Shown here piece after piece: positions 10,312-32,813 of a stretch of DNA of 64,000 nucleotides. The notes under the pieces were generated by a model that worked only from the letters and a program-made list of their open reading frames with translations, searched no databases and had not been told where the DNA came from. Origin of the DNA: Paenibacillus sp. FSL R7-0204. GTDB lineage: Bacteria > Bacillota > Bacilli > Paenibacillales > Paenibacillaceae. Position 1 is the stretch's first letter. Every line of letters starts with the position of its first letter. Location: assembly GCF_038002225.1 (NCBI RefSeq), contig NZ_JBBOCA010000001.1, positions 1,612,001 through 1,676,000 on the forward strand, given 5' to 3'. Made by a program: the position numbers and the translations under genes.

Positions 10312-11133
10312 ATGAAAGTATATAGAATGAGACGTGCAGAAAACTATTTAGATTTAACACTTGATAAATCAACTTCTTCAGAGCATCCGATTGAAACTGA
10401 CTTCACAGGTGAAACCAAATTATCATTTTGGACCCCCCCTATCATGTTTACAAATAAAAAAAAGAAGAAGAGTGACTTTCCTAGTTACTTAAATGGTAAG
10501 CCAGTAATATCAGCAAAGGCGAAGGATGTATTAGAAACTTATCTCGAAAAAGAAGTTGAATTTCTACCCTTGATTCACCCATCTTTAGAGTTCTCAATGA
10601 TTAATGTTACAAATATTATTGATTGCGTGGATTACAACAGATCTGTAATCAAATTAACTAGTAAAGGAACTTTCGCTGGATTTAACAAACTTGTTTTTGA
10701 CTTTTCCAAAATACCGGATAATACCTATATTTTTAAAATTAAAGAAACGGCTACCTTTTGTGAGTTCGTAACTGAAGCATTTAAAGATCTTGTAGAGCTC
10801 CACGGCCTTAAGGGCTTGGATTTCTCGGAGGTTTACGATTCAGCTTTTACTGCAGAAAAAGAAGAAGAACAGAAACAGAATTATCAAGCAGCCCTTGATT
10901 CTATTGAGCACAGCAAAGGGACTGAGTTTTCATATGATGAGGCTCGTATTCTTATGGAGCAGGGAAAAGCGGTTGCCAGCGGAAAATGGAGAATGCAACT
11001 AGATGAGAATGGGGAATTGTGGATAGCAGATCTGACTCCAGCTTTGGTGTATGACTGGGGACAGCCGATTTATATTCCTCCAGTGTTGATGCTGTTACAA
11101 TGGCACGAAGTAGAAAAGTACGATATTAAATAA
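10312..11133 (+). CDS. Probable immunity protein of the Imm11 (DUF1629) family
   Basis: A 273-residue soluble protein without a signal peptide. Its middle (KPVISAKAKDVLETYLEKEVEFLPL, then NVTNIIDCVDYNRS and a C-terminal VTEAFKDLVELHGLKGLDF) follows the Imm11/DUF1629 pattern seen in immunity proteins of polymorphic toxin loci. It starts 9 bases after the toxin stop with TAGGAGGATAAA as ribosome binding site, so it is almost certainly co-transcribed. The expected role is to bind and neutralise the AHH nuclease in the cytoplasm. A low-complexity KKKKK patch lies near residue 50. The family call is from recall; the immunity function is inferred from position. Confidence 0.75.
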   Translation: MKVYRMRRAENYLDLTLDKSTSSEHPIETDFTGETKLSFWTPPIMFTNKKKKKSDFPSYLNGKPVISAKAKDVLETYLEKEVEFLPLIHPSLEFSMINVTNIIDCVDYNRSVIKLTSKGTFAGFNKLVFDFSKIPDNTYIFKIKETATFCEFVTEAFKDLVELHGLKGLDFSEVYDSAFTAEKEEEQKQNYQAALDSIEHSKGTEFSYDEARILMEQGKAVASGKWRMQLDENGELWIADLTPALVYDWGQPIYIPPVLMLLQWHEVEKYDIK

Positions 11134-11152: not shown

Positions 11153-14100
11153 ATGTACTCATTAAAGCGGCCCTTTACATTTATCATAAGTTTAATTCTT
11201 GTTTTTACACTTCTTATCCCCGGTATTGGAACAGGAACACCTTCGGCGGCAGCCGCTGAAGGTGTTCCTGTAACCGTACATCAACTCAAAGGCAGTCTCA
11301 ATGTTAACGGTATTTATTACGGGCCAGTAGAACTTGGGCTCACCATTCAGAATCCGGGCTCTGGCGTTTCTTCAACCCGCTATAGCTTGGACGATGGAGG
11401 ATCTTGGCTAACCTACAATCAACCGATCTCTTTCTCAGATAAAAAGGTATACCATATTCTTTATCAGTCCATTGGACTAAATAACAATAATGAAGCACCT
11501 AAAGAAGTTTCCTTCACCATAAAAAAAGATAATTTCCCTCCAGAGACATCTGTTTCAGTGAATGGAACGTTAGGACAAAATTCTTATTACAACAGCAATG
11601 TTACAGTTTCTCTTAATGCAACCGATGCGCATTCCGGGATACAATACTCTGAGTATAGTTTCAATGCGGGACAGACATGGATTAAGTACACCACTCCTTT
11701 TACTGTGGAAGGGCCTAGTACAATCATCTACTACCGTTCAACGGATGTTGACGGGAACGTGGAAAAAGCAAAAAAAACGAAGATCAGTGTGGATAAGGAG
11801 CCACCGTCTTCTCCTGACTTCAATATTAGTCCGGATGTGTGGAGTAACTCTTCGTTCACCGTTACTATAACAGATGGTATCGACAGTCAGAGTGGTACTT
11901 TAAAATCACAGTATCGTATAGGAAGCTCTGGCGAGTGGCTTGATTATACCCATCCTGTAGTGGTAAACGGGAATGGACTGATGAATATATATGCCAGGAC
12001 GCTGGACTATGCCGGAAACAGCAGTATGATAGCCGAACATACATTGCAGTTTGATAAAACATCTCCTACTGTGCCATTAGTTGGTCTTAGTACTTCCGAT
12101 TGGACTAATGAACCAGTCTATATCAATCTGGATGGTGGTACAGATGCTGAGAGTCAAGTTCGAGGTTACGATTATAAGGTAGGTACGGCTGCAGAGTGGA
12201 GTGAATATGTTAATTCATTTCCTGTCCGCAGCGAAGGACTTACCAAGGTGTATGCCCGGACGATTGACATGGCGGGGAATGTAAGTGCAACTGCAGAAGG
12301 CACTGTTAAGATCGATTTAACTCCGCCAGTTGCACCTGCGAATATTTTTAAAATTAATCAGTTTGGAACTTCAGCCCTGATTCGCTGGTCAGCAGGTTCA
12401 GACAGCCTATCAGGAGTGAGCGAATATGAAGTTTTGAACGGAGAAGAGTTGCTTGGAATCACCAAGGATCAGCAGATTAAGCTGGAAAATATTCGTCCGA
12501 ATGAGAAATACTCCATTACTGTAGTAACCATAGATAATGCTGGTAATGTTTCTGAAGAAACGATTCCACTGGTTTTCTTCACCAGTAGCATTGCGGTATC
12601 CGGATATCGTGATCATAACTTTGCTCTGAATAATCAGGGACAGGTCTGGGGCTGGGGCCTTAATAATAAAGGTCAACTGGGAGATGGTACTCTCGTAACC
12701 CGAAATATTGCAACACGAATCTCAGCACTCGATGGCTTCGCTATGATCTCATCCGGATTGACCCAGAATATTGGGCTGCGTGCTGATGGTACCGTGTGGA
12801 CCTGGGGACAAAGTAGCGCCGGTAGTAATGTATCCTTGCAGTCAGTAGCCGGACTTGATCATATCGTATCCATCTCCTCTGGTCTCGGACACTTCGTGGC
12901 CCTGAAAGAGGATGGAACGGTCTGGACCTGGGGGAATAATGGTTTTGGACAACTGGGTACGGGAACAATTAATAGTTCTGCTGTTCCTGTGCAAGTCAGC
13001 GGATTGAACTCGGTTGTCTCGATTGCTGGCGGATATTACAACACTATGGCACTGAAAGAGGATGGCACCGTTTGGATCTGGGGGGATGGCTCCAGAGGGA
13101 TTCTTGGATATAATCCAACTGCTGAATATAAGCAACTTATCCCTTTGCAGATTCAAGGGCTGGATCATATTATTCAAATTGATTTCTCCTATATGCACGG
13201 AGCCGCACTTAAGAAGGATGGAACTGTGTGGACCTGGGGATTTAATGCATACGGTCAGCTTGGAAATGGGTCCACTTATGATGCCTCGGGTCCGGCAAAG
13301 GTTCAGAATTTGAGTAATATTATCAAGATATCTTCCTCGTATGCTCATAATTTAGCATTAACTGGTGAAGGTAAGGTCTGGAGCTGGGGTGACAATGCCC
13401 AAGGTGAATTGGGTGACGGCACTATTGTTCAGAACAGACTGGTTCCTGTTCGTTCTGCACATCTGGATGGAATTGCTGATATTGAGGCTGCTGAGTTTTA
13501 CAGCTTTGCTGTCAAACTGGATGGCTCCATGTGGGCCTGGGGAGTTAATAGTGACGCTCAACTGGGAACAGGGAATCTGACTCTGCAGCGTACCCGTACT
13601 ATAGTAACTGGAATAGATTATCCGGTTGATATTCAAGTTCCAGTTACCCCTAATTTGACGAGTACAGGAAAAACGGCAACTACAGCTGTACTTTCTTGGA
13701 ACGAGGCTTCCGATAATCACGGTATCAAGGATTATCTGGTTTATCGAGGGTCAAATCTGATTCAGGCACTTCCTGTAGACGGTAACTCCATCGAGTCAGT
13801 GACAGGGTACACTGCTACAGGTCTTGCGCCTGGAACCACATATACCTTCTCGGTTAAGGCGAGGGATTATGCTAATAATGTTTCTGCCTCTAGTAATGTG
13901 GTGTCGGTAACGATGGAGGCTTCGGCTCCAATGGCTGTCTCCGCAGGTTCTGATCAAACTTATGCCTTGAAGAGTGATGGCTCTGTTTGGACCTGGGGGA
14001 ATAACTACCAAGGGCAATTAGGGAATGGGAAGGCAACTAGTTCTAATAAGGCGACCCAAACTGTGAACCTTTCTTCAATAGCTGCGATCTCGGCAGGCGG

Positions 14101-15361
14101 GTCTTACGGGTTAGCTCTTAAAAGCGATGGCTCTGTATGGGGCTGGGGAGATAATTCCTTGGGGCAGCTAGGATATCAGCCAATTCCTTACCAGCAGTAC
14201 CTGCCGACTAGGATTGAGAATTTCCAATCTGTAACCGCCATTTCGGCAGGTCAAACACACTCTCTGGCGCTCAAGAGCGACGGAACAGTGTGGGCATGGG
14301 GATCGAATTATTATGGTGAATTAGGGCTTGGAACTACAGGAAATAAATATGCTCCTACAAAGATCCCTTCACTAAGCGGGGTGAAAGCTATAAGTGCAGG
14401 TATGTTCTACAGTTTGGCTCTTAAGAATGACGGCAGTGTCTGGGCCTGGGGAATGAATATGAACGGACAATTAGGAAACGGTTCTACAACAGATTCAATG
14501 ATTCCGGTAAAAGTTAACTCATTGGTCAATGTGAGCAGTCTATCTGCTGGGTTCTACCATGCGCTTGCCCTAAAGACAGATGGAACCGTCTGGGCCTGGG
14601 GCAGCAATTCGTATGGGCAACTTGGGGATAGGACTTATACGGACCGTTCCAACCCTGTAAATGTAACTTCTATTAGCGGAATTACGCAAATTTCTGCAGG
14701 TATGTATCATAGCATTGCAAAGAAGGATTCGGCTCTCTACAGCTGGGGTTATAATGCCTCTGGACAATTAGGTAATAATAGCACTAGTCCTTCATCTTCT
14801 CCTGTTACTGTTTCAGCTCTAACAAATATTAAAGACATAGATGCGGGTGTAAGTCATAATGCAGCGATTGACGGAAACATAGTGAAGACTTGGGGAGGTA
14901 ACAGTAGCGGAGAATTAGGTAATGGAAGTTCTTATGATTCCAGAGTTCCAGTAACTGTTTTGGGGTTAACACCAAGTCAAACTACTTCTCTCAAGACTAT
15001 AACCAGCAGTACGCTTGTGACAAAAGATTTAATTGTAAGCGGAGAGGCCGGACAGAGTCTTTATAAAAACATAAAATTCCCTGAAGGGTTTGTGATGCCA
15101 GACCTCATTGCACCTACTGCTCCTGCCTATGTGAAAATGACTAAGAATACCGGTGCAATTGTTATGCAATGGGAAGAATCGAAAGATAACAGGGGTATCA
15201 AAGAATACTGGGTATTCATTAACGAAAAACTTGTGCTAAAAACTACTGCACATGAAGGAATTGAACTACAGCTTCCTGAAAATGAAGTTATCTCAATTAC
15301 GGTTATTGCTGTAGATGAGGCGGGAAATGTCTCGAAGCCCAGTATGCCTGTATCTCCTTAA
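11153..15361 (+). CDS. Secreted protein with two seven-bladed RCC1 propellers, OmpL47-like and FN3 domains
   Basis: A 1402-residue secreted protein. A signal peptide (1-35) is followed by about four OmpL47/Ig-like repeats with the pattern YSLDDGGSWLTY / YSFNAGQTWIKY (40-390), an FN3 domain (392-475), a first RCC1 array (about 479-822), an FN3 domain (826-922), a second RCC1 array (926-1272), a linker, and a C-terminal FN3 domain (1320-1400). I count seven W-x-W-G-type blade motifs in each array, so each could close as a seven-bladed propeller. The last two blades of the second array have YSWG and KTWG variants. RCC1 folds are binding platforms; bacterial secreted versions are poorly characterised. 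It starts 19 bases after the immunity candidate with TCTGGAGGAATGAA upstream, so it is probably in the same operon. The partner or ligand is unknown. Confidence 0.85.
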   Translation: MYSLKRPFTFIISLILVFTLLIPGIGTGTPSAAAAEGVPVTVHQLKGSLNVNGIYYGPVELGLTIQNPGSGVSSTRYSLDDGGSWLTYNQPISFSDKKVYHILYQSIGLNNNNEAPKEVSFTIKKDNFPPETSVSVNGTLGQNSYYNSNVTVSLNATDAHSGIQYSEYSFNAGQTWIKYTTPFTVEGPSTIIYYRSTDVDGNVEKAKKTKISVDKEPPSSPDFNISPDVWSNSSFTVTITDGIDSQSGTLKSQYRIGSSGEWLDYTHPVVVNGNGLMNIYARTLDYAGNSSMIAEHTLQFDKTSPTVPLVGLSTSDWTNEPVYINLDGGTDAESQVRGYDYKVGTAAEWSEYVNSFPVRSEGLTKVYARTIDMAGNVSATAEGTVKIDLTPPVAPANIFKINQFGTSALIRWSAGSDSLSGVSEYEVLNGEELLGITKDQQIKLENIRPNEKYSITVVTIDNAGNVSEETIPLVFFTSSIAVSGYRDHNFALNNQGQVWGWGLNNKGQLGDGTLVTRNIATRISALDGFAMISSGLTQNIGLRADGTVWTWGQSSAGSNVSLQSVAGLDHIVSISSGLGHFVALKEDGTVWTWGNNGFGQLGTGTINSSAVPVQVSGLNSVVSIAGGYYNTMALKEDGTVWIWGDGSRGILGYNPTAEYKQLIPLQIQGLDHIIQIDFSYMHGAALKKDGTVWTWGFNAYGQLGNGSTYDASGPAKVQNLSNIIKISSSYAHNLALTGEGKVWSWGDNAQGELGDGTIVQNRLVPVRSAHLDGIADIEAAEFYSFAVKLDGSMWAWGVNSDAQLGTGNLTLQRTRTIVTGIDYPVDIQVPVTPNLTSTGKTATTAVLSWNEASDNHGIKDYLVYRGSNLIQALPVDGNSIESVTGYTATGLAPGTTYTFSVKARDYANNVSASSNVVSVTMEASAPMAVSAGSDQTYALKSDGSVWTWGNNYQGQLGNGKATSSNKATQTVNLSSIAAISAGGSYGLALKSDGSVWGWGDNSLGQLGYQPIPYQQYLPTRIENFQSVTAISAGQTHSLALKSDGTVWAWGSNYYGELGLGTTGNKYAPTKIPSLSGVKAISAGMFYSLALKNDGSVWAWGMNMNGQLGNGSTTDSMIPVKVNSLVNVSSLSAGFYHALALKTDGTVWAWGSNSYGQLGDRTYTDRSNPVNVTSISGITQISAGMYHSIAKKDSALYSWGYNASGQLGNNSTSPSSSPVTVSALTNIKDIDAGVSHNAAIDGNIVKTWGGNSSGELGNGSSYDSRVPVTVLGLTPSQTTSLKTITSSTLVTKDLIVSGEAGQSLYKNIKFPEGFVMPDLIAPTAPAYVKMTKNTGAIVMQWEESKDNRGIKEYWVFINEKLVLKTTAHEGIELQLPENEVISITVIAVDEAGNVSKPSMPVSP

Positions 15362-19036: not shown

Positions 19037-22000
19037 GTGAAGGGTCCCAAACGAAAACAGCAGCGCAGTTCCAAGAGACCGCTCTATTACGTGGATAATC
19101 CCGATACGACTGAACTTAGCATGATAGACAGCAGTCCCAAAACACAAAAAAACCAGGAATTGGAATGGGTGGAAGCGGCAGAGGGGGAAGACCTTGCCCT
19201 GCAGGTGAGCGGGGTGGAGATGCTGGAAGTGACCGCGCCGCCCGAGCAGACTGTACCTGCACTGGAAGAGAAACAGGAAACCGTGACGGAAGAGGTGCGT
19301 GGACAGGAGGAACGTGCAGTTCTGCTTGAAGCTGAAGTAACGGCTCCCCCGGAAAAAGAACGTCTGCAGCCCGTATACACCGATGACCTGTCCGATGCCG
19401 CCGTCACCGGTGCCAAGATTGCTCCACGAACCATTGACGGGTCCAGACTAAAGCATGGCATCATCGGTACACCCTGGCTGCAGGACTATGCGGTGCAGAG
19501 CATCAACCTTGCGGACCGGGCGGTTACCTCCCCGAAGATAGCGCCGGAGTCTGTTACCGGTGAGCATCTGGCGGAGAGCAGTATCAGCGGGGGCAAGCTG
19601 CTGGATCACTCCATTGGCGGTGAGAAGCTGAAGGACGGCAGCGTGGGTCCCGAGAAGCTGGCAGACCGGATGATAAGCGGAGGACATATTGCCGATGGTG
19701 CCATCAGCAGCCGCCATCTCAGTGAGTTCATTATCACAGCGGAGCTGCTGGATGACGGGGCGGTGACCGGTGAGAAGATACTCAGCAGCAGCATTGACAG
19801 CCGCCATCTCAGCAACGGCAGTATTGACCGCTCTAAGCTGGCTGACGAAGCAGTGTCCGCTGACAAAATCGCCGATGGCGAGATCAGCGGCGTCAAGCTG
19901 GGGGATGCGGTGATCGAGAGCCGGCATGTGGGGGAAGGCGTCATTACCGCGAGGCATCTGGCCCCGGGCGCCATTGGCCGGGAACAGCTGGCGGCGCGCC
20001 TGATCGGCAAGGACCAGCTTCAACCCGGTATTATTGAGAGCGGGCATCTCGCAGATGGGGCTGCCGGGTCCCGGCAGATCGCGGCGAAGGCTGTCCGCAG
20101 CCAGCATATTAACCCGGAGAGCATCCATGCGGACCATATCGCCGAAGGTGAGGTTGGCAGCCGTCATCTGGCAGACCGCAGCATTTCTTTTGTGAAGCTG
20201 GCAGACGGCGCGGTAGGGACTACACAGCTGATTGAGCAGGCGGTCACCTCTTCCAAAATAGCGGATCAGAGCATTCTGGCCCATAAGCTGGCTGACGAAG
20301 CCGTGATGACGCGCCATATTGCGAAATCTGCAGTGCGCAGTGCGCAGATTGCCACGCAGGCTGTCACTTCGGCACATTTGCAGCGCGAGGCCGTGGATAA
20401 TTCTCATCTGGCCGCAGAATCTGTAGGCTCTGCCCAGCTGCAGGAGCATTCCGTCCTGACCGGCCATCTGGCCAAAGGGGCAGTTACGGAAGAACAACTG
20501 GGGTATGAATCCGTTACAGGAGAACATATTAGCCCCCAGAGTATTACCGCAGCCAAGCTGGCGGACGGCAGCATCATTACCGCCAAGCTGGCCATGGGCG
20601 CGGTCGGGAGTACGATTCTTGCAAAAGAAGCGGTCAGCGGTGAGCATATTGCAGTCTGCGCCGTGGAAGAGAAGCACCTGGCGGACGGCAGCATCAGCGG
20701 ACGGGTGCTGCAGGAGGAGGCAGTAGACGCTGGTCATCTGGCATCCGGCGCTATCGAACGCAGGCATCTGGGAGACAGCAGTGTGACTTCATCCGCGCTG
20801 CAATCCGGTTCAGTAACAGCAGATAAGCTGTCCTCCGGTGCCGTCAAGGAGGCCCATCTCACTGCGGCGATTGTGCAGCCGCATCATTTGGCCGACTATG
20901 CCGTCACTTCCCTGAAGCTATCGCCGGAGAGTGTCTCAACGGATAAGCTCGGTGATCTGGCCGTCACTTCCATTAAGCTGGCGGACGGCAGTGTGAGTGC
21001 AGAGAAGCTGGCAGCCTCAGCAGTGCAGAGCGAGCATCTGTCGGAAGGCGCAGTCGGCCCGGATTCGCTTAAGGATACCTCTGTGCAAGGCAGACATCTA
21101 GCAGCGGGCAGCGTGGGCGGTGCACATATCCGGCCGCTGTCGGTTGGCAACGGGCATCTTATTCCAAGCTCTGTCTCCTCAATCCAGATTCAGGATGGCA
21201 GCATCAGCGGCACGAAGCTGGCAGAGGGGGCGGTAGCCTCTCAACATCTCACCCCTGGCAGTGTGGGCGGAAGCCAGCTGGCTGAGGCCTCAGTGGAAGG
21301 GCGGCATCTCGCGGATGGCGGCATTAGCCTGGCGCATCTGGCGGAGGAGGTCCGCAGTGCGGACCTCCTGCCTGACGGGAGCATTGGTGCAGAGAAGCTG
21401 GCGGCAGGTGCGGTGGAATCGGTTCATTTGGCTGAAGCGAGTGTTCAGGGTGTTCATTTGGCGCAGGCAGCGGTGGAAGCCCGGCATATCGGTGCCGGAG
21501 AGATTACGCTGGCCCATCTGGCCAAGGAGACGCGCAGCGCGGATATTCTCCCGGATGGCAGCATCGCAGGCAGTAAGCTGGGAGCAGGGGCGGTCGGAGC
21601 CTTCCATCTGGCTGCGGGCAGTGTGTATGGCGGCCACCTGGCTGCGGATGCAGTAAGCAGCCGGCATATCCGCGCCGGCAGCATTCAGCTCAGTCATCTG
21701 GCTTCCGATACGCGGGGCGCGGACCTGCTGCCGGATGGCAGCATAGGTGGAAGCAAGCTGGCTGAAGGCGCAGTGGATTCGCAGCATCTTCAGCCGCAGA
21801 GCGTGGATGCAGAGCATCTTGCAGGCGGAGTGATTCAAGAGCGTCATTTAGGCTCAGGAATTATCCGGCTTACGCATCTGGCTGAGGAGACGAGAAGTGC
21901 GGAGCTGCTGCCGGATGGCAGCATAGGTGGAAGCAAGCTGGCCGAAGGCGCGGTGGATTCGCAGCATCTCCAGCCGCAGAGCGTGAACGGTGAGCATCTT

Positions 22001-24151
22001 GCCGGTAGAGCCATCCAGGAGCATCACTTGGGTTCAGGAATTATCCGGCTTACGCATCTCGCGGAGGAAACCAGAAGTGCGGAGCTGCTGCCGGATGGCA
22101 GCATAGGTGGAAGCAAGCTGGCTGAAGACGCAGTGGGTTCGCAGCATCTCCAGCCGCAGAGCGTGAACGCAGAGCATCTTGCCGGTAGAGCCATCCAAGA
22201 GCATCACTTGGGCTCTGGAATTATCCGGCTGGCGCATCTCGCGGAGGAAACCAGAAGTGCGGAGCTGCTGCCGGATGGCAGCATAGGTGGAAGCAAGCTG
22301 GTTGAAGGCGCAGTGAGTTCGCAGCATCTCCAGCCGCAGAGCGTGAACGCAGAGCATCTTGCAGGCGGAGTAATCCGGGATCGCCATTTGGGGCCGGGAG
22401 TTATCCGGCTGGCGCATCTCGCGGAGGAAACCAGAAGTGCGGAGCTGCTGCCGGATGGCAGTATTAGTGGAAGCAAGCTGGCCGCAGGTTCTGTAGGCTC
22501 TATCCATCTGGCTTCCGGCAGCATCTATGGAGGTCACCTGGCGCCTGAAGCTGTGGATAGCTGTCATATCCGTCCCGGCAGCATCAGCCTGGAGCATCTG
22601 GCGCAGGATGCCCGGACCGCTGAACTTTTGCAGGACGGCAGTATTACAGGGGGGAAGGTTGCTCCTCACAGCATTGGAACCAGTCATCTGGCGGAAGGCG
22701 CAGTGGGAAGCTCAGAGCTTCAAGATGAAGCCGTGGATGGTTCCAAAATCGCATCCTTTGCCATCCAGTCCCGGCATCTGGAAGAAGACAGCGTGCAGAG
22801 CTACCACATTGTTCAGAATGCAGTGAGCGGGGATCATCTGGCGCCTGATTCTGTGGATAGCAGCCATCTCCGTGCGGGCAGCATCCAGCGTGAGCATCTG
22901 GCAGAGGGCACGCTAACCTCCGAGCTGCTTGGAGAAGGCAGCATAGACGGCAGCAAGCTGGCGCCAGGAGCGGTGGGGCCAAATCATCTGGCTCCGGGCA
23001 GCATCTACGGAGGCCATCTGGCTCCCGGAATTGTTGACGGGCGCCATATCCGTCCCGGCAGCATCGGCCTGGAGCATCTGTCCGGGGATGCGCTGACCTC
23101 CGAGCTGCTCCCGGACCATAGTGTTACAGGAGAGAAGCTTGCTCTTCACAGTGTCGGCACCGGCCATCTGGCTGAAGGTGCGGTAGGCAGCACTGAGCTG
23201 CAGGATGAGGCGGTGAAGGCTGCCAAAATTGCTTCCTTTGCCGTTCAGTCCCGGCATCTGGAAGAAGACAGCATCCAGAGCCATCACATTGCTCAGGATG
23301 CAGTGAATGGAGATCATCTGGCTCCCTATTCAGTGGATAGCAGTCATCTCCGCGCGGGCAGCATCCAGCGTGAGCACCTGGCAGAGGGCACGCTAACCTC
23401 CGAGCTGCTCGGAGAAGGCAGCATAGACGGCAGCAAGCTGGCGCCAGGAGCGGTGGGGCCTAATCATCTCGCTCCGGGCAGCATCTACGGAGGCCATTTG
23501 TCTCCTGGAATTGTTGACGGGCGCCACATTCGTCCTGGCAGCATAGGCCTGGAGCATCTGGCTGGAGATGCACTGACCTCCGAGCTGCTCCCGGACCATA
23601 GTGTGAACGGAGCGAAGCTTGCGATTCACAGCGTAGGCACCGGACATCTGGCTGAAGGTGCGGTAGGAAGTTCTGAACTGCAGGATGAGGCGGTTAAGGC
23701 TTCGAACATCGCTCCCTTTGCCGTCCAGTCCCGGCATCTGGAAGAAGACAGCATCCAGAGCCATCATATTGCTCAGGGTGCAGTGAACGGGGATCATCTG
23801 GCTCCCGGATCAGTCAATGCGGAGCATCTGTCCTTCCATCCGGTGCAGAGTGTCGGGAACCGCGATGTTTTGCAGCAGTTCGGGATGACGGCGTTTATGT
23901 TCAATGGTGAGGCGGAGAGTGTAGAGGTGAGCGTTTCTTTTGACGAGAGCTTCGGTCATACCGGCTACGTGCTGGTTGCCATGGCTAACCAGCCGTACTT
24001 CCATGCTTCGCTGAAGAACAGAACGGGCGGAGGAGCGACGATTGAGGTGGTGCGGCTGCGTGAGACCCAGCATTTCTATGGCGTGCTGTCATGGATTGCG
24101 CTCGGCACTCCGCTGGTCAAACCTGCTGTGGAGCATCGTGCTTTTGATTGA
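19037..24151 (+). CDS. Giant decapeptide-repeat fibre protein with WIAG-like C-terminal domain
   Basis: A 1704-residue protein beginning at GTG behind AAGGAGGAGA. It has no signal peptide, which fits deposition from the mother cell. A charged head (1-116, Lys/Glu-rich) is followed by roughly 148 ten-residue repeats (about residues 117-1597) with the pattern [IV]-x-[SGA]-x-H/K-[LI]-A-x-G-[AS], for example VTGEHLAESS and IGGEKLKDGS. Such regular repeats with periodic aliphatic residues suggest a beta-helical, possibly trimeric, fibre like phage tail-fibre or surface-fibre stalks. The last 105 residues form a non-repetitive beta-rich cap containing GVLSWIALG, which I relate from memory to the WIAG-tail domain of Paenibacillus proteins. 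Four glycosylation-related genes follow. The likely role is a spore-surface or exosporium filament; this is inference. Confidence 0.75.
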   Translation: MKGPKRKQQRSSKRPLYYVDNPDTTELSMIDSSPKTQKNQELEWVEAAEGEDLALQVSGVEMLEVTAPPEQTVPALEEKQETVTEEVRGQEERAVLLEAEVTAPPEKERLQPVYTDDLSDAAVTGAKIAPRTIDGSRLKHGIIGTPWLQDYAVQSINLADRAVTSPKIAPESVTGEHLAESSISGGKLLDHSIGGEKLKDGSVGPEKLADRMISGGHIADGAISSRHLSEFIITAELLDDGAVTGEKILSSSIDSRHLSNGSIDRSKLADEAVSADKIADGEISGVKLGDAVIESRHVGEGVITARHLAPGAIGREQLAARLIGKDQLQPGIIESGHLADGAAGSRQIAAKAVRSQHINPESIHADHIAEGEVGSRHLADRSISFVKLADGAVGTTQLIEQAVTSSKIADQSILAHKLADEAVMTRHIAKSAVRSAQIATQAVTSAHLQREAVDNSHLAAESVGSAQLQEHSVLTGHLAKGAVTEEQLGYESVTGEHISPQSITAAKLADGSIITAKLAMGAVGSTILAKEAVSGEHIAVCAVEEKHLADGSISGRVLQEEAVDAGHLASGAIERRHLGDSSVTSSALQSGSVTADKLSSGAVKEAHLTAAIVQPHHLADYAVTSLKLSPESVSTDKLGDLAVTSIKLADGSVSAEKLAASAVQSEHLSEGAVGPDSLKDTSVQGRHLAAGSVGGAHIRPLSVGNGHLIPSSVSSIQIQDGSISGTKLAEGAVASQHLTPGSVGGSQLAEASVEGRHLADGGISLAHLAEEVRSADLLPDGSIGAEKLAAGAVESVHLAEASVQGVHLAQAAVEARHIGAGEITLAHLAKETRSADILPDGSIAGSKLGAGAVGAFHLAAGSVYGGHLAADAVSSRHIRAGSIQLSHLASDTRGADLLPDGSIGGSKLAEGAVDSQHLQPQSVDAEHLAGGVIQERHLGSGIIRLTHLAEETRSAELLPDGSIGGSKLAEGAVDSQHLQPQSVNGEHLAGRAIQEHHLGSGIIRLTHLAEETRSAELLPDGSIGGSKLAEDAVGSQHLQPQSVNAEHLAGRAIQEHHLGSGIIRLAHLAEETRSAELLPDGSIGGSKLVEGAVSSQHLQPQSVNAEHLAGGVIRDRHLGPGVIRLAHLAEETRSAELLPDGSISGSKLAAGSVGSIHLASGSIYGGHLAPEAVDSCHIRPGSISLEHLAQDARTAELLQDGSITGGKVAPHSIGTSHLAEGAVGSSELQDEAVDGSKIASFAIQSRHLEEDSVQSYHIVQNAVSGDHLAPDSVDSSHLRAGSIQREHLAEGTLTSELLGEGSIDGSKLAPGAVGPNHLAPGSIYGGHLAPGIVDGRHIRPGSIGLEHLSGDALTSELLPDHSVTGEKLALHSVGTGHLAEGAVGSTELQDEAVKAAKIASFAVQSRHLEEDSIQSHHIAQDAVNGDHLAPYSVDSSHLRAGSIQREHLAEGTLTSELLGEGSIDGSKLAPGAVGPNHLAPGSIYGGHLSPGIVDGRHIRPGSIGLEHLAGDALTSELLPDHSVNGAKLAIHSVGTGHLAEGAVGSSELQDEAVKASNIAPFAVQSRHLEEDSIQSHHIAQGAVNGDHLAPGSVNAEHLSFHPVQSVGNRDVLQQFGMTAFMFNGEAESVEVSVSFDESFGHTGYVLVAMANQPYFHASLKNRTGGGATIEVVRLRETQHFYGVLSWIALGTPLVKPAVEHRAFD
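21721..22620 (+). repeat. 180-bp tandem repeat inside the fibre gene, about five copies
   Basis: Blocks starting at 21721, 21901, 22081, 22261 and, partly, 22441 are nearly identical at DNA level and spaced by exactly 180 bases, equal to 60 residues or six decapeptides. Each opens with the words CGGATGGCAGCAT and GGAAGCAAGCTGG. Confidence 0.92.
22481..23830 (+). repeat. 480-bp tandem repeat inside the fibre gene, about 2.8 copies
   Basis: A second, longer period of exactly 480 bases (160 residues, sixteen decapeptides) links positions 22501/22981/23461, 22681/23161/23641 and 22621/23101/23581. Copies differ by scattered substitutions, many of them synonymous. Confidence 0.9.
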
Positions 24152-27899: not shown

Positions 27900-28265
27900 G
27901 GGAAAGGAGAGCGGGTGAGGGGGAAGAGTAGTTGGTCTACATAGGAAGAGGATGGGGATTGAAGGAAACTTAAGAGGTCAAAAGTAACTAAAGGGATAAA
28001 TCCCGTAGAATTCACCGGAAGTGGGCTGGGAGCCGGAATGAAGTGTACAAATGCACCTGAATCCGGCGAAAGTTGGCGTTGGACGGAAATGAGGAGCACT
28101 AATACCCCTGAATCCCACCGTAAGCGGGCGCAGGGGCCAAAAGTCGGCGAAACTCCCCCGGCGGGCTGTGCTTCCATTTCAGCATGCAGTCCTGGGCATA
28201 TAGTCTCTAGTATGCAGCCATTAACTTATCGTCCGCAGCTTATCGTCCGCAGCTTATCGTCCCAG
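27900..28265. repeat. Intergenic repeats: degenerate 60-bp pair and three 14-bp units
   Basis: This 420-base gap holds no supportable gene. Two degenerate copies of a roughly 60-base element (about 28030-28085 and 28086-28140, both with CACCTGAATCC- or CCCCTGAATCC-like cores) are followed by three tandem 14-bp units, CTTATCGTCCGCAG, at 28225-28265. The third unit is shortened. Confidence 0.6.
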
Positions 28266-28291: not shown

Positions 28292-28816
28292 TCAGCTACT
28301 GGCTGGCCGAGCAATTCTCCACCAGAACAAATCCTCGGTTTCCCGGTACAGCTCCGCACCCAGGTGCTGCAGGACACGGTGGGAGGCGAAGTTATCCTTC
28401 TCGGTATCTGCAATGACCCAGCGTGCGCCGGGATGGCTGAAGATCCAGGCGGTGATCTGCCGCAGCGCTTCTGTGGCATAGCCCTGGCCCCAGTATCTCT
28501 CGTCCAGGACATAACCAACGATGACCTCCCCTTGCTCGTTCGGGGGGCCTTTGAGAATCAGGAAGCCGATGAGCTGCTGCTGCTCCCGGTGGATGATGGC
28601 CCACATGGTCAGCCAACAGTAGTTCTCTTCATCCTGTAGTACCTTCGCATGCCTGACCCGCAGCGCATAGCGCATCTCTTCATCGTCCAGCAGGGTGGTG
28701 GTGCTCGTCACATTCAAGCCCAGCGCCTGCTCCAGCTCCGAATAATTCTCCAGGGATAAAGCAAGCTCGGCAGCATTCAATGGCCGGAGCCTCAGGTGGT
28801 TGTCCGTATATGTCAT
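28292..28816 (-). CDS. GNAT acetyltransferase, RimJ/RimL type
   Basis: A 174-residue acetyl-CoA-dependent N-acetyltransferase. The acetyl-CoA binding region reads VGYVLDERYWGQGYATEALRQI (Q/R-x-x-G-x-G/A motif), preceded by IGFLILKGPPNEQGEVIVGY and followed by EKDNFASHRVLQHLGAE, the usual RimJ/RimL C-terminal pattern. The start at 28814-28816 is preceded on the minus strand by AGGAGTAGATCGATTTTC. It is transcribed away from the following operon. The substrate is unknown; ribosomal protein or small-molecule amine are both possible. Confidence 0.85.
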   Translation of the reverse strand: MTYTDNHLRLRPLNAAELALSLENYSELEQALGLNVTSTTTLLDDEEMRYALRVRHAKVLQDEENYCWLTMWAIIHREQQQLIGFLILKGPPNEQGEVIVGYVLDERYWGQGYATEALRQITAWIFSHPGARWVIADTEKDNFASHRVLQHLGAELYRETEDLFWWRIARPASS

Positions 28817-28865
28817 GAAAATCGATCTACTCCTTTATTCTAGTATACATATAATAAAGAACATT

Positions 28866-28997
28866 ATGACTAAGAAACAAACTCATGATCTGCTGAAGCA
28901 CGGACTAATAGTCCGAATTGTTGGCTTTGCCAGTGAAGCAAAGAATGAATCCTCCTTGTATATGTTGATCAAACGATTGATGATGTCCTTTAAGTAA
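28866..28997 (+). CDS. Possible 43-residue small protein, doubtful
   Basis: ATG at 28866 opens a 43-codon frame (starting MTKKQTHDLLKHGL, ending SSLYMLIKRLMMSFK). It is basic and partly amphipathic, lying in AT-rich DNA between the GNAT gene and the ubiA operon. There is no good ribosome binding site (TAAAGAACATT) and I recognise no family, so it may not be translated. Confidence 0.2.
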   Translation: MTKKQTHDLLKHGLIVRIVGFASEAKNESSLYMLIKRLMMSFK

Positions 28998-29101
28998 TGG
29001 AATGCGCATGAATGACACGACCAGGAAAATTGTGTTATGTTAATCAGAAGTGAAATCAGAAATCTTCAAAATATAGAACCCGAGATATAAGGAGGCCCCT
29101 T

Positions 29102-29998
29102 TTGCAACCCCAATCTAATATCAGTATAAACAGACGGATTTTTTGGCTTTTAATTAAGCAAATGAGGCCTAAACAATGGACAAAGAATTTGCTTATTTTT
29201 GCCGCGCCATTGTTTTCTTTTGAAGTAGTAACTACTGCCGATATTTTTTACACTTTTTCAGGTTTCCTGCTCCTATGTTTTATATCAGGTTGCGTATACA
29301 TCGTTAATGATTACATCGATATTGAATCTGATCAGAATCATCCTGTAAAACGGAATCGTCCCATGGCTTCAGGAGAATTGAACCCCGGTATTGCCTTAAT
29401 CTTTGGGGCCCTTATTGTTATATTGTCTTTGTCCCTAGCGTATGTATTAAATCCGTTGTTTTCTCTTTTGCTAGTTTTCTATTTTTGTATAAATGTTGCT
29501 TACTCGTTACGTCTTAAAAATGTTGTTATCATTGATATCATGATTATTGCAGCGGGCTTTGTATTACGGGCAATTGCTGGCGGACTTGTTATTCATGTTC
29601 CCTTTACGCCCTGGTTTTTATTATGCACTATGCTGCTTTCTCTTTTTCTCGCAATTGGGAAAAGAAGACATGAGCTTTTTTTGCTTGGAAATGAAAAGGC
29701 TGCACATCGTAAAGTGCTAGAGAATTATTCTTTTGAACTATTAGATCAATTAAGCAGTATTGTAACAACAGCTACGATAATTAGCTATTCATTGTTTACA
29801 TTTACATCTGGACGAACTATACAATTAATGTGGACCATACCTTTGGTTATTTACGGTGTCTTCAGATATTTATATTTGATCCATATAGAAAATAAAGGCG
29901 GAGCCCCGGATAAAGTATTATTTGAGGATAAGCACATCCTGATTACAGTTGTCCTCTATGTAGTCAGTGTAATTTTAATTTTATATTATTTTGAATAG
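29102..29998 (+). CDS. UbiA-family polyprenyl-phosphate phosphoribosyltransferase (DPPR synthase-like)
   Basis: A 298-residue integral membrane prenyltransferase. Its first Asp-rich motif, NDYIDIESDQNHPVKRNRP, and second region, YSLRLKNVVIIDIMIIAAG followed by RAIAGG, match the subgroup that transfers phosphoribose from PRPP to a polyprenyl phosphate (Rv3806c/DPPR synthase of mycobacteria), rather than quinone-forming UbiA/MenA. RPKQWTKNLLIF at the N terminus also fits. It starts at TTG 29102 behind AAGGAGGCCCCTT. The DNA is AT-rich, unlike the flanks. It heads a five-gene operon with tight spacing. The expected product is a polyprenyl-phospho-ribose 5-phosphate on the inner membrane face, which the next gene could dephosphorylate. 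Confidence 0.85.
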   Translation: MQPQSNISINRRIFWLLIKQMRPKQWTKNLLIFAAPLFSFEVVTTADIFYTFSGFLLLCFISGCVYIVNDYIDIESDQNHPVKRNRPMASGELNPGIALIFGALIVILSLSLAYVLNPLFSLLLVFYFCINVAYSLRLKNVVIIDIMIIAAGFVLRAIAGGLVIHVPFTPWFLLCTMLLSLFLAIGKRRHELFLLGNEKAAHRKVLENYSFELLDQLSSIVTTATIISYSLFTFTSGRTIQLMWTIPLVIYGVFRYLYLIHIENKGGAPDKVLFEDKHILITVVLYVVSVILILYYFE

Positions 29999-30015
29999 GC
30001 TGAAGGGGAATCTAA

Positions 30016-30648
30016 ATGTATCTGAAGCTCGCCTTATTTGATATTGACAAGACGATTATTGATAAAGATTCTATGTTTTCATTCTTGTTTTATGGACTAA
30101 GAAAGACCCCCACTTCTTTCCATATGTTCATTCTTGCCGGATTATATGCTGTTCTTTATCGGTTGAATTGTATATCTGCTGAAGTTGCTAAAAGTGCCTT
30201 TTTTAGTTTTATGAAATATATGAATGATAATGATCTTAAGCACTTTTTCAATACCAAACTTAAACCTCACATTTATAGACAAGCCTTAGAGGAGATTCGC
30301 CTTAGGAAACGGGAAGGTTATCATATACTTCTGGTTACAGCGTCCCCAATTGCCTACATGAAATATTTTGAAGAGCTAAATGAAGTGGATGGTGTAATTG
30401 GAACAGAGCTTTTGTTTGAGAAGGGACATTATACAGGTACTATCCAGGGGAATAACTGTAAAGGTGAAGAAAAGGTAGTGCGCATAAAGGGTTATTTAAA
30501 AGAGAAGAAGATTACAGTAGATTACAATAATTCATGTGCGTATTCTGATTCCTTATCCGACATGCCAATGCTTAATCTGGTGAAACAAAGATATATAATT
30601 AACTCTAATAATGCAGCGGGTTGTGAGGTATTGAAATGGAGCAACTGA
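30016..30648 (+). CDS. HAD-IB phosphatase, candidate polyprenyl-phosphoribose phosphatase
   Basis: A 210-residue HAD-superfamily phosphatase with motif I LFDIDKTIID (nucleophile and general-acid Asp), motif II LLVTASP, a lysine near GNNCKGEEK and motif III YSDSLSDMPML. This layout is subfamily IB, like SerB. It lies 17 bases after the UbiA gene and overlaps the next by 13 bases. HAD domains fused to or beside DPPR-synthase-like UbiA proteins are known in other bacteria and are thought to remove the 5-phosphate of the lipid-linked ribose. That role is inferred from position. A general phosphoserine-type phosphatase is the alternative. Confidence 0.8.
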   Translation: MYLKLALFDIDKTIIDKDSMFSFLFYGLRKTPTSFHMFILAGLYAVLYRLNCISAEVAKSAFFSFMKYMNDNDLKHFFNTKLKPHIYRQALEEIRLRKREGYHILLVTASPIAYMKYFEELNEVDGVIGTELLFEKGHYTGTIQGNNCKGEEKVVRIKGYLKEKKITVDYNNSCAYSDSLSDMPMLNLVKQRYIINSNNAAGCEVLKWSN

Positions 30649-30974
30649 CAAAGGTGAAAAAGGGGTCTATCGGAAAATGGTTTATGATTATTTCAGCCTT
30701 TTTGACAGCAACTGGACAGTTATTTTGGAAATGGGGTCATAGCAATATCATTTATATGGCCCTAGGCTTTGTATGTTACGGAATTGGGGCATTTTTTATG
30801 ATAAGCTCATTTAAATTTTTGAAACTATCTGTGGCTTATCCCCTCATGTGTACAAGTTACATTATCGCTCTGGTTTATGGCGGGTTATTTCTTGGGGAAC
30901 CCATTACGTTGAAGAAATTGGTGGCTGTTACTCTTCTAGGGATAGGAGTGAGCGTAACCACCTATGAAAAATGA
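30636..30974 (+). CDS. SMR/ArnE-like small membrane protein, flippase half 1
   Basis: A 112-residue protein with four membrane helices and the EamA/SMR pattern: TGQLFWKWG in helix 1, LSVAYPLMCTSYIIAL at helix 3, and LFLGEPITLKKLVAVTLLGIGV at helix 4. The closest functional model I know is ArnE/ArnF, which form a heterodimer that flips undecaprenyl-phosphate-aminoarabinose. It overlaps both neighbours and is followed at once by a second SMR-type gene, as arnE and arnF are. Confidence 0.78.
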   Translation: MEQLTKVKKGSIGKWFMIISAFLTATGQLFWKWGHSNIIYMALGFVCYGIGAFFMISSFKFLKLSVAYPLMCTSYIIALVYGGLFLGEPITLKKLVAVTLLGIGVSVTTYEK

Positions 30975-31284
30975 ACAATTCTTATATTTGCTTCTTGTAA
31001 TTATGACGATATTGGGTTCTTTAGGGAGTGTCTTTTTTAAAAGTTTTACTGAGAAAAAACAATTTTATCTCCTGTTTTTTGGATTTTTTTTATATGGAGG
31101 CGGTGCTTTGCTCAATATTTATTTGCTGAGAAGACTGCCTTATACTTTAGTAGTTCCAGCGAATTCCCTTACTTTTTTGTGGACAATAATATTAGCAAAA
31201 GTCTTTTTTAAGGAAACTATAGGTATTATGAAAATATCAGGTTTTATTTTCATAATTTCGGGTCTTTTTTTACTGGTAAACTAA
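30964..31284 (+). CDS. SMR/ArnF-like small membrane protein, flippase half 2
   Basis: A 106-residue protein with four membrane helices, overlapping the preceding SMR gene by 11 bases. Helix 1 has LGSLGSVFFKSF, helix 3 LPYTLVVPANSLTFLWTIILAKVFFKE and helix 4 ISGFIFIISGLFLLVN. It is diverged from its neighbour, which suggests an obligate heterodimer of opposite orientation. Within the operon the natural substrate would be the polyprenyl-phospho-sugar made by the first two genes; this is inference. Confidence 0.72.
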   Translation: MKNEQFLYLLLVIMTILGSLGSVFFKSFTEKKQFYLLFFGFFLYGGGALLNIYLLRRLPYTLVVPANSLTFLWTIILAKVFFKETIGIMKISGFIFIISGLFLLVN

Positions 31285-31314
31285 AAATGAATAAATGAAA
31301 GATTGGAGATTATT

Positions 31315-32613
31315 ATGTCGTTTTATACTTATTATTTCAAGGATAAAAAGGATAACTATATAGCAGCAGCAGTAGGGCTTGTTTTATTCTTGGGTTATCT
31401 GCTTATTAACATGCCTTACATTCAGTACATCAAAGAGAACGCTGATATGCTATCTGTCTTCAATCCATTCTACGGTGCTCCATTTTCTTTAAACTTGTTT
31501 AACTTTGACCCCTCAGTGGAATATGGCAGCCTTACTTCATCTATCATTCATCCACTATATAATTTTCTTACAGCTCCGCTTAACTATTTATCAGTTCATT
31601 CTGTTGGTAATTTGTTTTTTCTTTTGCTGCAGTCCATATTGAATGCATTGGGCACTGCTATTCTTTTTTTCATTATGCGCAAGAGCGGATCATCTCGGGG
31701 GATTTCGGCTTTTTTCTCAATTCTTTTTGGTGTATGTTCTTATACATTGTTTTCTTCATTAATCCCAGATTCGTATCCCTACGCTCAACTAATTATGATT
31801 TTATCTGCTGCATACCTATATAAATCTCGTGATTTATCTTCATTCCCAGTTATTCCGGGAGCATTATTGATTTTGCTGAATTTTGGGATTACCTCCACAA
31901 ATTTAATTACATTTACTGGTGCCTTATTTGTAAGCATATATAATTCTAGCTATAGGATGGAGACGTTGAAACGTTTTTTGAGGATCATGATTTTTTCATT
32001 ACTTTTGCTCATATTCTTTACGGGGTTACAATACGCCCTATTTTCTGGGAAAACATGGGTTTCGAATGTCGGAGGAGGCCTATCGAATGGTGCCTTTGGT
32101 TATATATCCCCTTTTTCACTTGCTCATCATTCTGAATTATTTCATATGTTAGTGGTCAACCCGGTTCTTACGCCAGAAATTTCATTAATAGATCCGAAAA
32201 TTGTTGCCTTTGCCTCGAATATCAGTGCACCTCATCCAATCTACGTACAATTTGCAGGCTTCGGGATAACTGTTCTGGCTATACTGGGGTTCATCCGAGG
32301 TATTCGTAATCGAGAAGTTTGGTCATTGATGATTTATCCCCTTTTTGCAATTTTCTTGCATATAGTCATTGGTTTTGGTCTTGCGGCATACAAATACGAT
32401 CTGTATTTATACGCGGGACATTATCTATTTGCAATCTTCCTTCTTGCCAGTTTTTTTGTAAGGACAGTAACGAATGTTAAGCTAAAAAAAGTGTGTTCTT
32501 CCTTTATCATCTTGTTGATTATTGTGACAATGGCTAACAATATAGTTAAGCATTATTCAACGTTAGATTACATTAAGTCATCATATATCAAGCTTGAGAA
32601 TCAATCAGATTAA
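31315..32613 (+). CDS. Multi-span membrane protein, GT-C-like glycosyltransferase candidate
   Basis: A 432-residue membrane protein with about eleven hydrophobic segments. The start was placed at ATG 31315 because TTGGAGA precedes it; an upstream TTG at 31303 lies inside that binding site. The first external loop (residues about 35-80) contains NPFYGAPFSLNLFNFDPSVEYG, with acidic and aromatic residues of the kind that line GT-C active sites, and SLIPDSYPYAQL follows later. I do not recognise a named family. Position at the end of the lipid-linked sugar operon suggests it transfers the flipped sugar on the outside. An unrelated membrane protein is possible. Confidence 0.6.
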   Translation: MSFYTYYFKDKKDNYIAAAVGLVLFLGYLLINMPYIQYIKENADMLSVFNPFYGAPFSLNLFNFDPSVEYGSLTSSIIHPLYNFLTAPLNYLSVHSVGNLFFLLLQSILNALGTAILFFIMRKSGSSRGISAFFSILFGVCSYTLFSSLIPDSYPYAQLIMILSAAYLYKSRDLSSFPVIPGALLILLNFGITSTNLITFTGALFVSIYNSSYRMETLKRFLRIMIFSLLLLIFFTGLQYALFSGKTWVSNVGGGLSNGAFGYISPFSLAHHSELFHMLVVNPVLTPEISLIDPKIVAFASNISAPHPIYVQFAGFGITVLAILGFIRGIRNREVWSLMIYPLFAIFLHIVIGFGLAAYKYDLYLYAGHYLFAIFLLASFFVRTVTNVKLKKVCSSFIILLIIVTMANNIVKHYSTLDYIKSSYIKLENQSD

Positions 32614-32645
32614 TGGATACAAGAGTGAATGCCGGATGTTCAATA

Positions 32646-32695
32646 AAAATAAAGCCGCGAGTCTCTTATAGAGAGAATTGCGGCTTTATTTTTTT
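32646..32695 (+). terminator. Rho-independent terminator of the ubiA operon
   Basis: AAATAAAGCCGC (32648-32659) pairs with GCGGCTTTATTT, followed by more T residues. The loop contains a further small CTCT/AGAG hairpin. This marks the end of the five-gene operon. Confidence 0.9.
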
Positions 32696-32813
32696 GGTGA
32701 TCACCATAATAAGATATTGCACTCGCTTGGGTATAATTGCTTCCTGACTTCCTTCTATTAGCTTGAATATCTATGTCTTTCAAAATTAAAGTTTTACTAA
32801 TTGATGTTGCGGC

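What the first reader, a model, noticed from the sequence alone, without database searches (positions are those of the whole stretch)
29102..32613. Candidate lipid-linked pentose pathway in a spore former
Five tightly packed AT-rich genes give a logical chain: DPPR synthase-like UbiA (phosphoribose onto polyprenyl phosphate), HAD phosphatase, two SMR/ArnE-F-like half-flippases, and a GT-C-like membrane protein. This resembles the start of the mycobacterial decaprenyl-phosphoarabinose route joined to an Arn-like flippase. No DprE1/DprE2-type epimerase is seen, so the product may be a ribofuranosyl lipid. It sits inside a spore-glycan region, so ribosylation of a surface glycan or teichoic acid is a testable idea.
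Basis: partly seen in the sequence, partly recalled or inferred. Interest (0 to 1): 0.78.

Follow-up and report, generated by a model that had tools for sequence, protein, structure and literature searches.

The report
Ribose-lipid glycosylation cassette in Paenibacillus
Five adjacent genes in a spore-forming bacterium look like a complete kit for putting ribose on a membrane lipid, flipping it outside and attaching it to a surface molecule; the same general kind of pathway was described in 2024, but this version uses different flippase and transferase parts and seems to have arrived in this genome by a recent insertion.

Summary
In detail: five packed genes form one AT-rich unit. The UbiA-like protein is a PRPP-type polyprenyl-phosphate phosphoribosyltransferase: it passes NCBI's cut-off, its best solved relative is Rv3806c, it keeps most PRPP-contact residues, and it stands apart from the genome's five haem/quinone-type UbiA paralogues. 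The fifth protein (DUF6080) has a confident GT-C model. In an even draw of the family, 65 of 245 genomes carry the enzyme; 52 of those 65 loci have DUF6080 nearby and 42 the full set in this order. One of the 65 genomes has a strong DprE1 match and it lacks DUF6080, so ribofuranose is likelier than arabinose.

Closest known kind: the 2024 three-component pentofuranose system of Citrobacter (PMC11127046). Differences: separate HAD phosphatase, SMR pair instead of MATE, and a GT-C with no detected sequence kin among solved structures. The spore-glycan link is not supported: here the cassette is a ~4 kb insertion (35% versus 53% GC) between genes that relatives keep close together without it, and its neighbours differ elsewhere. 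The acceptor is unknown and no step is shown biochemically. A new variant of a known kind.

The parts
29102..29998 (+). Polyprenyl-phosphate phosphoribosyltransferase (UbiA superfamily, Rv3806c type), 298 aa, TTG start
   Evidence: NCBIfam NF008977 264.9 bits over cut-off 234; PDB 8j8j E 1e-43; R22 K28 Y66 N69 D73 K83 R86 Y134 K139 match PRPP-contact residues of Rv3806c; tree
30016..30648 (+). HAD-IB phosphatase, presumed 5-phosphatase of the phosphoribosyl lipid, 210 aa
   Evidence: PF12710 E 6.7e-35; TIGR01490 131.1 bits over cut-off 98.3; DxD, VTAS, GEEK and SDSLSD stretches read in the sequence (motif meaning recalled); in 43 of 64 fetched family-sample loci, DUF212 instead in 10
30636..30974 (+). 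SMR/EamA half-transporter 1, presumed flippase subunit, 112 aa
   Evidence: EamA 32.1 bits over cut-off 28.2; ArnF model 27.5 bits, below cut-off 99; conserved order
30964..31284 (+). SMR/EamA half-transporter 2, presumed flippase subunit, 106 aa
   Evidence: EamA 38.3 bits over cut-off 28.2; ArnE model 29.2 bits, below cut-off 92; 22% identical to SMR1, E 2e-6
31315..32613 (+). GT-C glycosyltransferase of family DUF6080 (PF19558), presumed ribofuranosyltransferase, 432 aa
32645..32693 (+). Terminator-like hairpin, 22-nt arms 91% complementary, 5-nt loop, T-rich tail
   Evidence: inverted repeat I1; the consensus terminator scan did not list it
28775..32809 (.). Inserted stretch without counterpart in close relatives; left edge uncertain (28770-28816 in 9 of 11 relatives compared)
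   Evidence: the closest relative has about 257 bp between the same flanks

Best explanation
A self-contained extracytoplasmic pentofuranosylation cassette. (1) The UbiA-type enzyme moves 5-phosphoribose from PRPP onto a polyprenyl phosphate (undecaprenyl phosphate expected). (2) The HAD protein removes the 5-phosphate, giving polyprenyl-phospho-ribofuranose. (3) The SMR pair flips this lipid to the outer leaflet. (4) The DUF6080 GT-C transfers ribofuranose, probably alpha-linked if it inverts, onto a surface glycan or protein that is not encoded in the cassette. Nothing is shown biochemically. Step 1 is strongly supported by homology and residues, step 4's fold by modelling; steps 2 and 3 rest on family and conserved neighbourhood; ribose rather than another pentose rests on the missing DprE1; the acceptor is unknown. 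In this genome the cassette was probably acquired recently by insertion.
For: UbiA passes two curated phosphoribosyltransferase models, NF008977 264.9 vs 234 and NF008978 228.3 vs 207 bits, and matches Rv3806c (8j8j, E 1e-43). Of 12 residues that contact PRPP or Mg in Rv3806c (PMC10994848, section 10 read), nine (R22, K28, Y70, N73, D77, K87, R90, Y138, K143) are identical in 36 of 36 rows of this type including the window, while none of the genome's five other UbiA proteins has K28, Y70 or K87; those five are a haem O synthase, two MqnP/UbiA-like and two MenA-like proteins and lie apart with 100/99 support. Order UbiA-HAD-SMR1-SMR2-GTC in 41 of 64 fetched loci of an even family draw, plus the window; GT-C in the locus in 51 of 64. 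HAD and DUF212 (divergent PAP2) were never found together: 43 with HAD, 10 with DUF212, 0 with both, 11 with neither, as expected of interchangeable phosphatases. GT-C fold: pLDDT 92.7; matches to ALG12, PMT, PglB, AftB, ArnT. No DprE1 match in own genome at 1e-10. A Lactococcus plasmid has 533-aa protein - UbiA - HAD - GtrA, the same logic with another small membrane family.
Against: No biochemistry. HAD is missing in 8 of 51 GT-C-bearing fetched loci, and 10 of 10 genomes with HAD-less cassettes had no HAD relative elsewhere at E <= 1e-6, so it is replaceable or dispensable. Three loci have UbiA and GT-C without SMR genes nearby. ArnE/ArnF models stay far below cut-off. The third phosphoribosyltransferase model, NF008976, is not met (180.1 vs 474). 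The HAD is only weakly like the phosphatase half of a fused Sinorhizobium protein (20% identity, E 0.011). Rv3806c Q135, which contacts ribose, is Asn here, as in 32 of 36 rows. An SDR epimerase elsewhere in the genome was not looked for.
Confidence: 0.7

Rival explanations
1. The lipid is epimerised by an unlinked enzyme, so the transferred sugar is arabinofuranose or xylofuranose and not ribofuranose.
For: Other lineages have UbiA with DprE1/DprE2-type genes: Lentibacillus L050 (domains), Cloacimonadota L064 (same clusters), the Paenibacillaceae genome G433 (L156) and, by annotation, a Flammeovirgaceae plasmid. An SDR epimerase is linked to xylofuranose in Citrobacter O2, and its GT-C also took a xylose donor (PMC11127046, sections 9 and 12 read).
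Against: Of 65 family genomes with UbiA, one (G433) has a strong DprE1 match (1041 bits) and it lacks DUF6080; 18 others show 42.8-66.2 bits at 24-34% identity, most over the FAD-binding part alone, though one in a DUF6080 carrier (G478) spans residues 47-444. Own genome: no match at 1e-10, 27.7 bits over a partial stretch with another query. No epimerase gene lies in the cassette.
Confidence: 0.2
2. Spore-surface ribosylation: the cassette is part of the surrounding spore-glycan gene region.
For: The window has a YheC/D-type ATP-grasp gene, GT2 genes and a sugar nucleotidyltransferase upstream and DUF3880-containing glycosyltransferases downstream. That these are spore genes is recalled, not tested.
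Against: Close relatives keep the flanks near each other without the cassette. In 124 loci (44 named, 80 unnamed, partly the same genomes) none of the four small genes just downstream nor the upstream GNAT gene was found near the enzyme at 1e-8; a nucleotidyltransferase-like gene recurs in 6 loci, all without DUF6080, plus a GT2 hit in L037 and a weak GNAT hit in L142.
Confidence: 0.08
3. A quinone or other prenyltransferase operon with incidental membrane genes.
For: UbiA superfamily membership; one source names relatives 4-hydroxybenzoate polyprenyltransferase.
Against: Quinone and haem models score 48.7 bits or less, far below their cut-offs; the genome has five other UbiA genes of haem and quinone type; residues and tree.
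Confidence: 0.02

Closest known systems
Three-component pentofuranose system of Citrobacter youngae O1/O2 (ORF15 PRP-PPPRS, ORF14 MATE, ORF12 GT136; PMC11127046; outline, sections 7, 9, 12 and passages read)
   Same: PRPP-derived polyprenyl-phospho-ribofuranose made by a UbiA-type enzyme with a HAD phosphatase, a flippase and a GT-C, encoded together
   Different: Here HAD and UbiA are separate genes, the presumed flippase is an SMR pair and not MATE, the GT-C is DUF6080 without the C-terminal binding module (432 aa), and the host is Gram-positive
Mycobacterial decaprenyl-phospho-arabinose route (Rv3806c, Rv3807c, DprE1/DprE2, Rv3789, Emb/Aft; as told in PMC11127046)
   Same: First enzyme homologous with conserved PRPP-contact residues; GT-C acceptor step
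   Different: No DprE1 found; HAD phosphatase instead of the unrelated Rv3807c; EamA/SMR pair
CsbB/GtcA/YfhO three-component glycosylation of teichoic acids (PMC7389260, PMC8035078; search listing only)
   Same: Lipid-linked sugar, small flippase, GT-C, Gram-positive envelope
   Different: Donor here is made from PRPP by a UbiA-type enzyme and not from a nucleotide sugar by a GT2 enzyme (the latter recalled)
ArnE/ArnF/ArnT of lipid A modification (recalled)
   Same: Paired small half-flippase and GT-C using a polyprenyl-phospho-pentose
   Different: ArnE/F model cut-offs not met; different sugar synthesis

Membership tests
Polyprenyl-phosphate phosphoribosyltransferase (Rv3806c type) | Curated model cut-off | tested here: met
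   NF008977 264.9 vs 234 and NF008978 228.3 vs 207 bits met; the third model NF008976 180.1 vs 474 not met. Control: NF008977 found a match in 1 of 14 named genomes (Corynebacterium glutamicum), below cut-off
Polyprenyl-phosphate phosphoribosyltransferase (Rv3806c type) | PRPP and Mg contact residues of Rv3806c | tested here: met
   9 of 12 named residues invariant in 36 of 36 rows; K208 also kept in the window (29 of 36); Q135 is Asn and Y157 is Phe in the window
Polyprenyl-phosphate phosphoribosyltransferase (Rv3806c type) | Not in a quinone or haem branch | tested here: met
   Five paralogues separate with 100/99 support; long branches, so the inner order is unsure
Polyprenyl-phosphate phosphoribosyltransferase (Rv3806c type) | Transfers phosphoribose to polyprenyl phosphate | not testable with these tools
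   Needs an enzyme assay
Three-component pentofuranose glycosylation system | Synthase, phosphatase, flippase and GT-C encoded together | tested here: met
   Window and 41 of 64 fetched family-sample loci
Three-component pentofuranose glycosylation system | HAD phosphoribose phosphatase related to the PRP domain | tested here: inconclusive
   HAD-IB family met; similarity to a fused PRP-type half only E 0.011, to the Lactococcus HAD E 5e-17
Three-component pentofuranose glycosylation system | MATE-family flippase, as in the prototype | tested here: not met
   EamA/SMR pair instead; the paper itself mentions an SMR-family transporter in mycobacteria
GT-C glycosyltransferase | GT-C fold | tested here: met
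GT136 | Sequence kinship to ORF12 | tested here: inconclusive
   Profile against a Sinorhizobium 658-aa protein, presumed GT136 from context only: probability 0.3%; ORF12 itself was not available
ArnE/ArnF | Curated model cut-offs | tested here: not met
   27.5 vs 99 and 29.2 vs 92 bits
Mycobacterial-type arabinosylation | DprE1/DprE2 epimerase | tested here: not met
   No DprE1 match in own genome at 1e-10; DprE2 not searched genome-wide

The most novel reading that the evidence does not exclude
DUF6080 founds a new family of extracytoplasmic ribofuranosyltransferases, and the cassette is a horizontally moving ribosylation module that re-decorates a Paenibacillaceae surface polymer, altering the cell surface (for example phage receptors) in the way that seroconverting glucosylation cassettes do in enterics.
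Probability: 0.4. Interest if true: 0.6.

Novelty: new variant of a known kind. Interest (0 to 1): 0.47.

Why it matters
It would extend PRPP-dependent, lipid-linked ribofuranosylation to a widespread Gram-positive lineage with a different flippase and a different GT-C, and suggests that phosphatase, flippase and transferase parts are exchanged around one conserved enzyme. No paper in the searched library names DUF6080, so one knockout with sugar analysis could give that family a function. Ribofuranose on a Paenibacillus surface polymer is a direct, cheap prediction.

Tried and rejected
Quinone or haem UbiA: rejected by models, residues and tree. Spore linkage: not supported by neighbourhood. 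DprE1-based arabinose: no strong DprE1 with any DUF6080 cassette among the 65 genomes; in the 100-genome genus set 2 matches at 22% identity, both in genomes without the enzyme at 1e-25. DUF6080 by sequence against solved structures: none at E <= 10 with a profile; one irrelevant weak hit with the single sequence. Profile comparison with other neighbours of the enzyme: weak C-terminal similarity to the Lactococcus 533-aa protein (70% probability, 107 columns) and to L138 833-2464 (55%), none to the L037 609-aa protein. PF19558 across the phylum: 2 of 299 genomes at 1e-8 (own and G164, whose locus L121 has the five genes), 0 of 14 controls; the model sees mainly the C-terminus, so this undercounts. 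Family NF006088 (HAD-UbiA fusion): only the UbiA half matches in own genome, below cut-off; in 14 controls 10 have a match, 0 over cut-off. Promoter scan: 10 found against 16.1 expected, uninformative. Insertion ends: no convincing direct repeat. Literature: searches (0 papers; 0; 4; 15 of 65 listed; 8; 3; 12 of 34 listed) showed, by title and start of abstract, no paper on this cassette in Paenibacillus; the library is open-licence only. Phages: one 6.6-kb record with a 33% identical enzyme, not followed.
Full report
What is there. Five + strand genes lie at 29102-32613: a UbiA-type protein (298 aa), a HAD-IB phosphatase (210 aa), two EamA/SMR proteins (112 and 106 aa) and a DUF6080 membrane protein. 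Gaps are 30 nt or less or slight overlaps, and a strong hairpin with a T-rich tail follows at 32645-32693. The DUF6080 gene most likely starts at ATG 31315. The stretch is 35% GC against 53% for the rest of the window.

What the first enzyme is. The UbiA protein passes two curated models for decaprenyl-phosphate phosphoribosyltransferase (264.9 vs 234 and 228.3 vs 207 bits) and fails a third (180.1 vs 474), while haem and quinone models stay at 48.7 bits or less. Its only solved relatives at E <= 0.001 are the two Rv3806c sequences. Twelve residues that PMC10994848 (section 10 read) places in contact with PRPP or Mg were compared in an alignment of 41 rows: R22, K28, Y70, N73, D77, K87, R90, Y138 and K143 are identical in all 36 rows of this type including the window; K208 in 29; Q135 is Asn in 32; Y157 is Phe in 35. 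None of the five other UbiA proteins of this genome has K28, Y70 or K87. Those five are a haem O synthase, two MqnP/UbiA-like and two MenA-like proteins, and a maximum-likelihood tree separates them with 100/99 support; several branches are long, so I use the tree only for that split.

How conserved the set is. A search of 100 genomes of the genus found the enzyme in 20 at E <= 1e-25; 17 of the 20 have the DUF6080 gene close by. Of 44 named loci from public genomes, 38 carry DUF6080: 34 titled Paenibacillus, two Saccharibacillus, one Paenibacillaceae and one Bacilli bin. In an even draw of 245 genomes of the family, 65 carry the enzyme at 1e-20, in 14 of 19 genera. I fetched all 64 loci other than the window. 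Orders by tblastn: UbiA-HAD-SMR1-SMR2-GTC 41, UbiA-SMR1-SMR2-GTC 5, UbiA-GTC 3, UbiA-HAD-SMR2-GTC 1, HAD-GTC-SMR-UbiA 1 (L163, where only one SMR gene was called), no GTC 13. So DUF6080 lies near the enzyme in 51 of 64, or 52 of 65 with the window.

What the partners do. In the same 64 loci HAD occurs in 43 and DUF212, a divergent PAP2 protein, in 10, never both; 11 have neither. The loci are related, so the Fisher value of 2e-6 overstates the case, but the pattern is that of alternative phosphatases, and PMC11127046 notes that the 5-phosphatase differs between systems. Ten genomes with HAD-less cassettes have no other HAD relative at E <= 1e-6, so another phosphatase must serve there or the step is dispensable. 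Other places show other combinations: 533-aa protein - UbiA - HAD - GtrA on a Lactococcus plasmid, a fused HAD-UbiA protein beside an oxidoreductase and a 658-aa protein in Sinorhizobium, and UbiA - PHP - LPG_synthase_TM in a haloarchaeon. That the SMR pair is the flippase is inference; ArnE/ArnF cut-offs are not met and three loci lack nearby SMR genes.

Which pentose. DprE1/DprE2-type genes sit beside the enzyme in Lentibacillus, a Cloacimonadota bin, a Flammeovirgaceae plasmid (annotation) and one Paenibacillaceae genome, G433. A search of all 65 enzyme-bearing family genomes with the G433 DprE1 found G433 itself (1041 bits) and 18 weak matches (42.8-66.2 bits, 24-34% identity, most over the FAD-binding part). 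One of these, in G478, which carries DUF6080, spans residues 47-444 at 24%. The window's genome has none at 1e-10. So the lipid is probably left as ribofuranose. A single-gene SDR epimerase such as Citrobacter ORF13 was not searched for genome-wide.

Where it sits. The downstream flank from 32810 is 93-96% identical over about 3 kb to six genus relatives in which the enzyme was not found. Upstream homology ends at 28770-28816 in 9 of 11 relatives compared, at 28684 in L202 and 27868 in L198; the closest relative has about 257 bp where the window has about 4.0 kb. In other genomes the cassette is close to its surroundings in composition (mean GC 0.472 inside, 0.494 outside, 65 GT-C-bearing loci of the 80 fetched; exception L166, 0.29 against 0.49), so its low GC here points to recent arrival from an AT-rich source. 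No mobile gene or clear repeat marks the ends. Neighbours elsewhere are different (aminotransferase, pyridine nucleotide-disulphide oxidoreductase and others), and of ten window flank proteins searched against 124 loci only a nucleotidyltransferase-like gene (6 loci, all without DUF6080), a GT2 (L037) and a weak GNAT (L142) were found. Position in a spore-gene region is therefore no evidence for a spore function.

Comparison with known systems. PMC11127046 (outline, sections 7, 9, 12 and passages read) demonstrates the same logic in Citrobacter youngae: HAD-fused phosphoribosyltransferase, MATE flippase (its activity not shown directly), GT136 GT-C, alpha-ribofuranose side chains; it says that candidate systems exist in Gram-positive bacteria, including Bacillus, without known structures. 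Its main text does not contain the word Paenibacillus; its supplement was not read. The present set works like that system and differs in its parts, so I call it a new variant of a known kind.

Confidence by step (my own estimates): phosphoribosyl transfer 0.93; GT-C transferase 0.9; HAD as phosphatase 0.8; SMR pair as flippase 0.7; ribose as the transferred sugar 0.75; acceptor unknown.

Noticed in passing
window 4777-10302 and 10312-11133: A 1841-aa protein with subtilase, pretoxin-HINT and AHH nuclease domains, followed by an Imm11-family gene: looks like a polymorphic toxin with its immunity protein.
   Followed up: no
window 19037-24151: A 1704-aa ORF without any Pfam match at 0.001; coding status not checked.
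   Followed up: no
window 11153-15361: A 1402-aa protein with 11 RCC1 stretches plus fibronectin type III domains.
   Followed up: no
window 27990-28130 and L186 10-418: Short stretch matched several times in tandem (about 51-bp steps) in a relative between the nucleotidyltransferase and GNAT genes; copy number seems to vary.
   Followed up: no
L136, L138, L140, L141, L151, L157, L162, L164, L165, L167: Enzyme loci with a DUF212 (divergent PAP2) gene and without HAD and DUF6080; DUF212 may be the phosphoribosyl-lipid phosphatase in a second type of system.
   Followed up: partly
L156 (G433): The only locus of the family sample with DprE1-DprE2 next to the enzyme: a likely arabinofuranosyl lipid pathway in a Bacillota.
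   Followed up: partly
L210 (Lactococcus plasmid pLLF27D): 533-aa protein, phosphoribosyltransferase, HAD phosphatase and GtrA gene inside a polysaccharide gene cluster on a plasmid typed as mobilizable.
   Followed up: partly
L166 (G495): A second very AT-rich cassette (29% GC inside, 49% outside), suggesting repeated transfer.
   Followed up: no
L159, L160, L153, L056: Copies that look damaged or duplicated: a stop inside the enzyme match in G480 (L159) and G572 (L160), two HAD pieces and a short SMR frame in L153, a split HAD match in L056.
   Followed up: no
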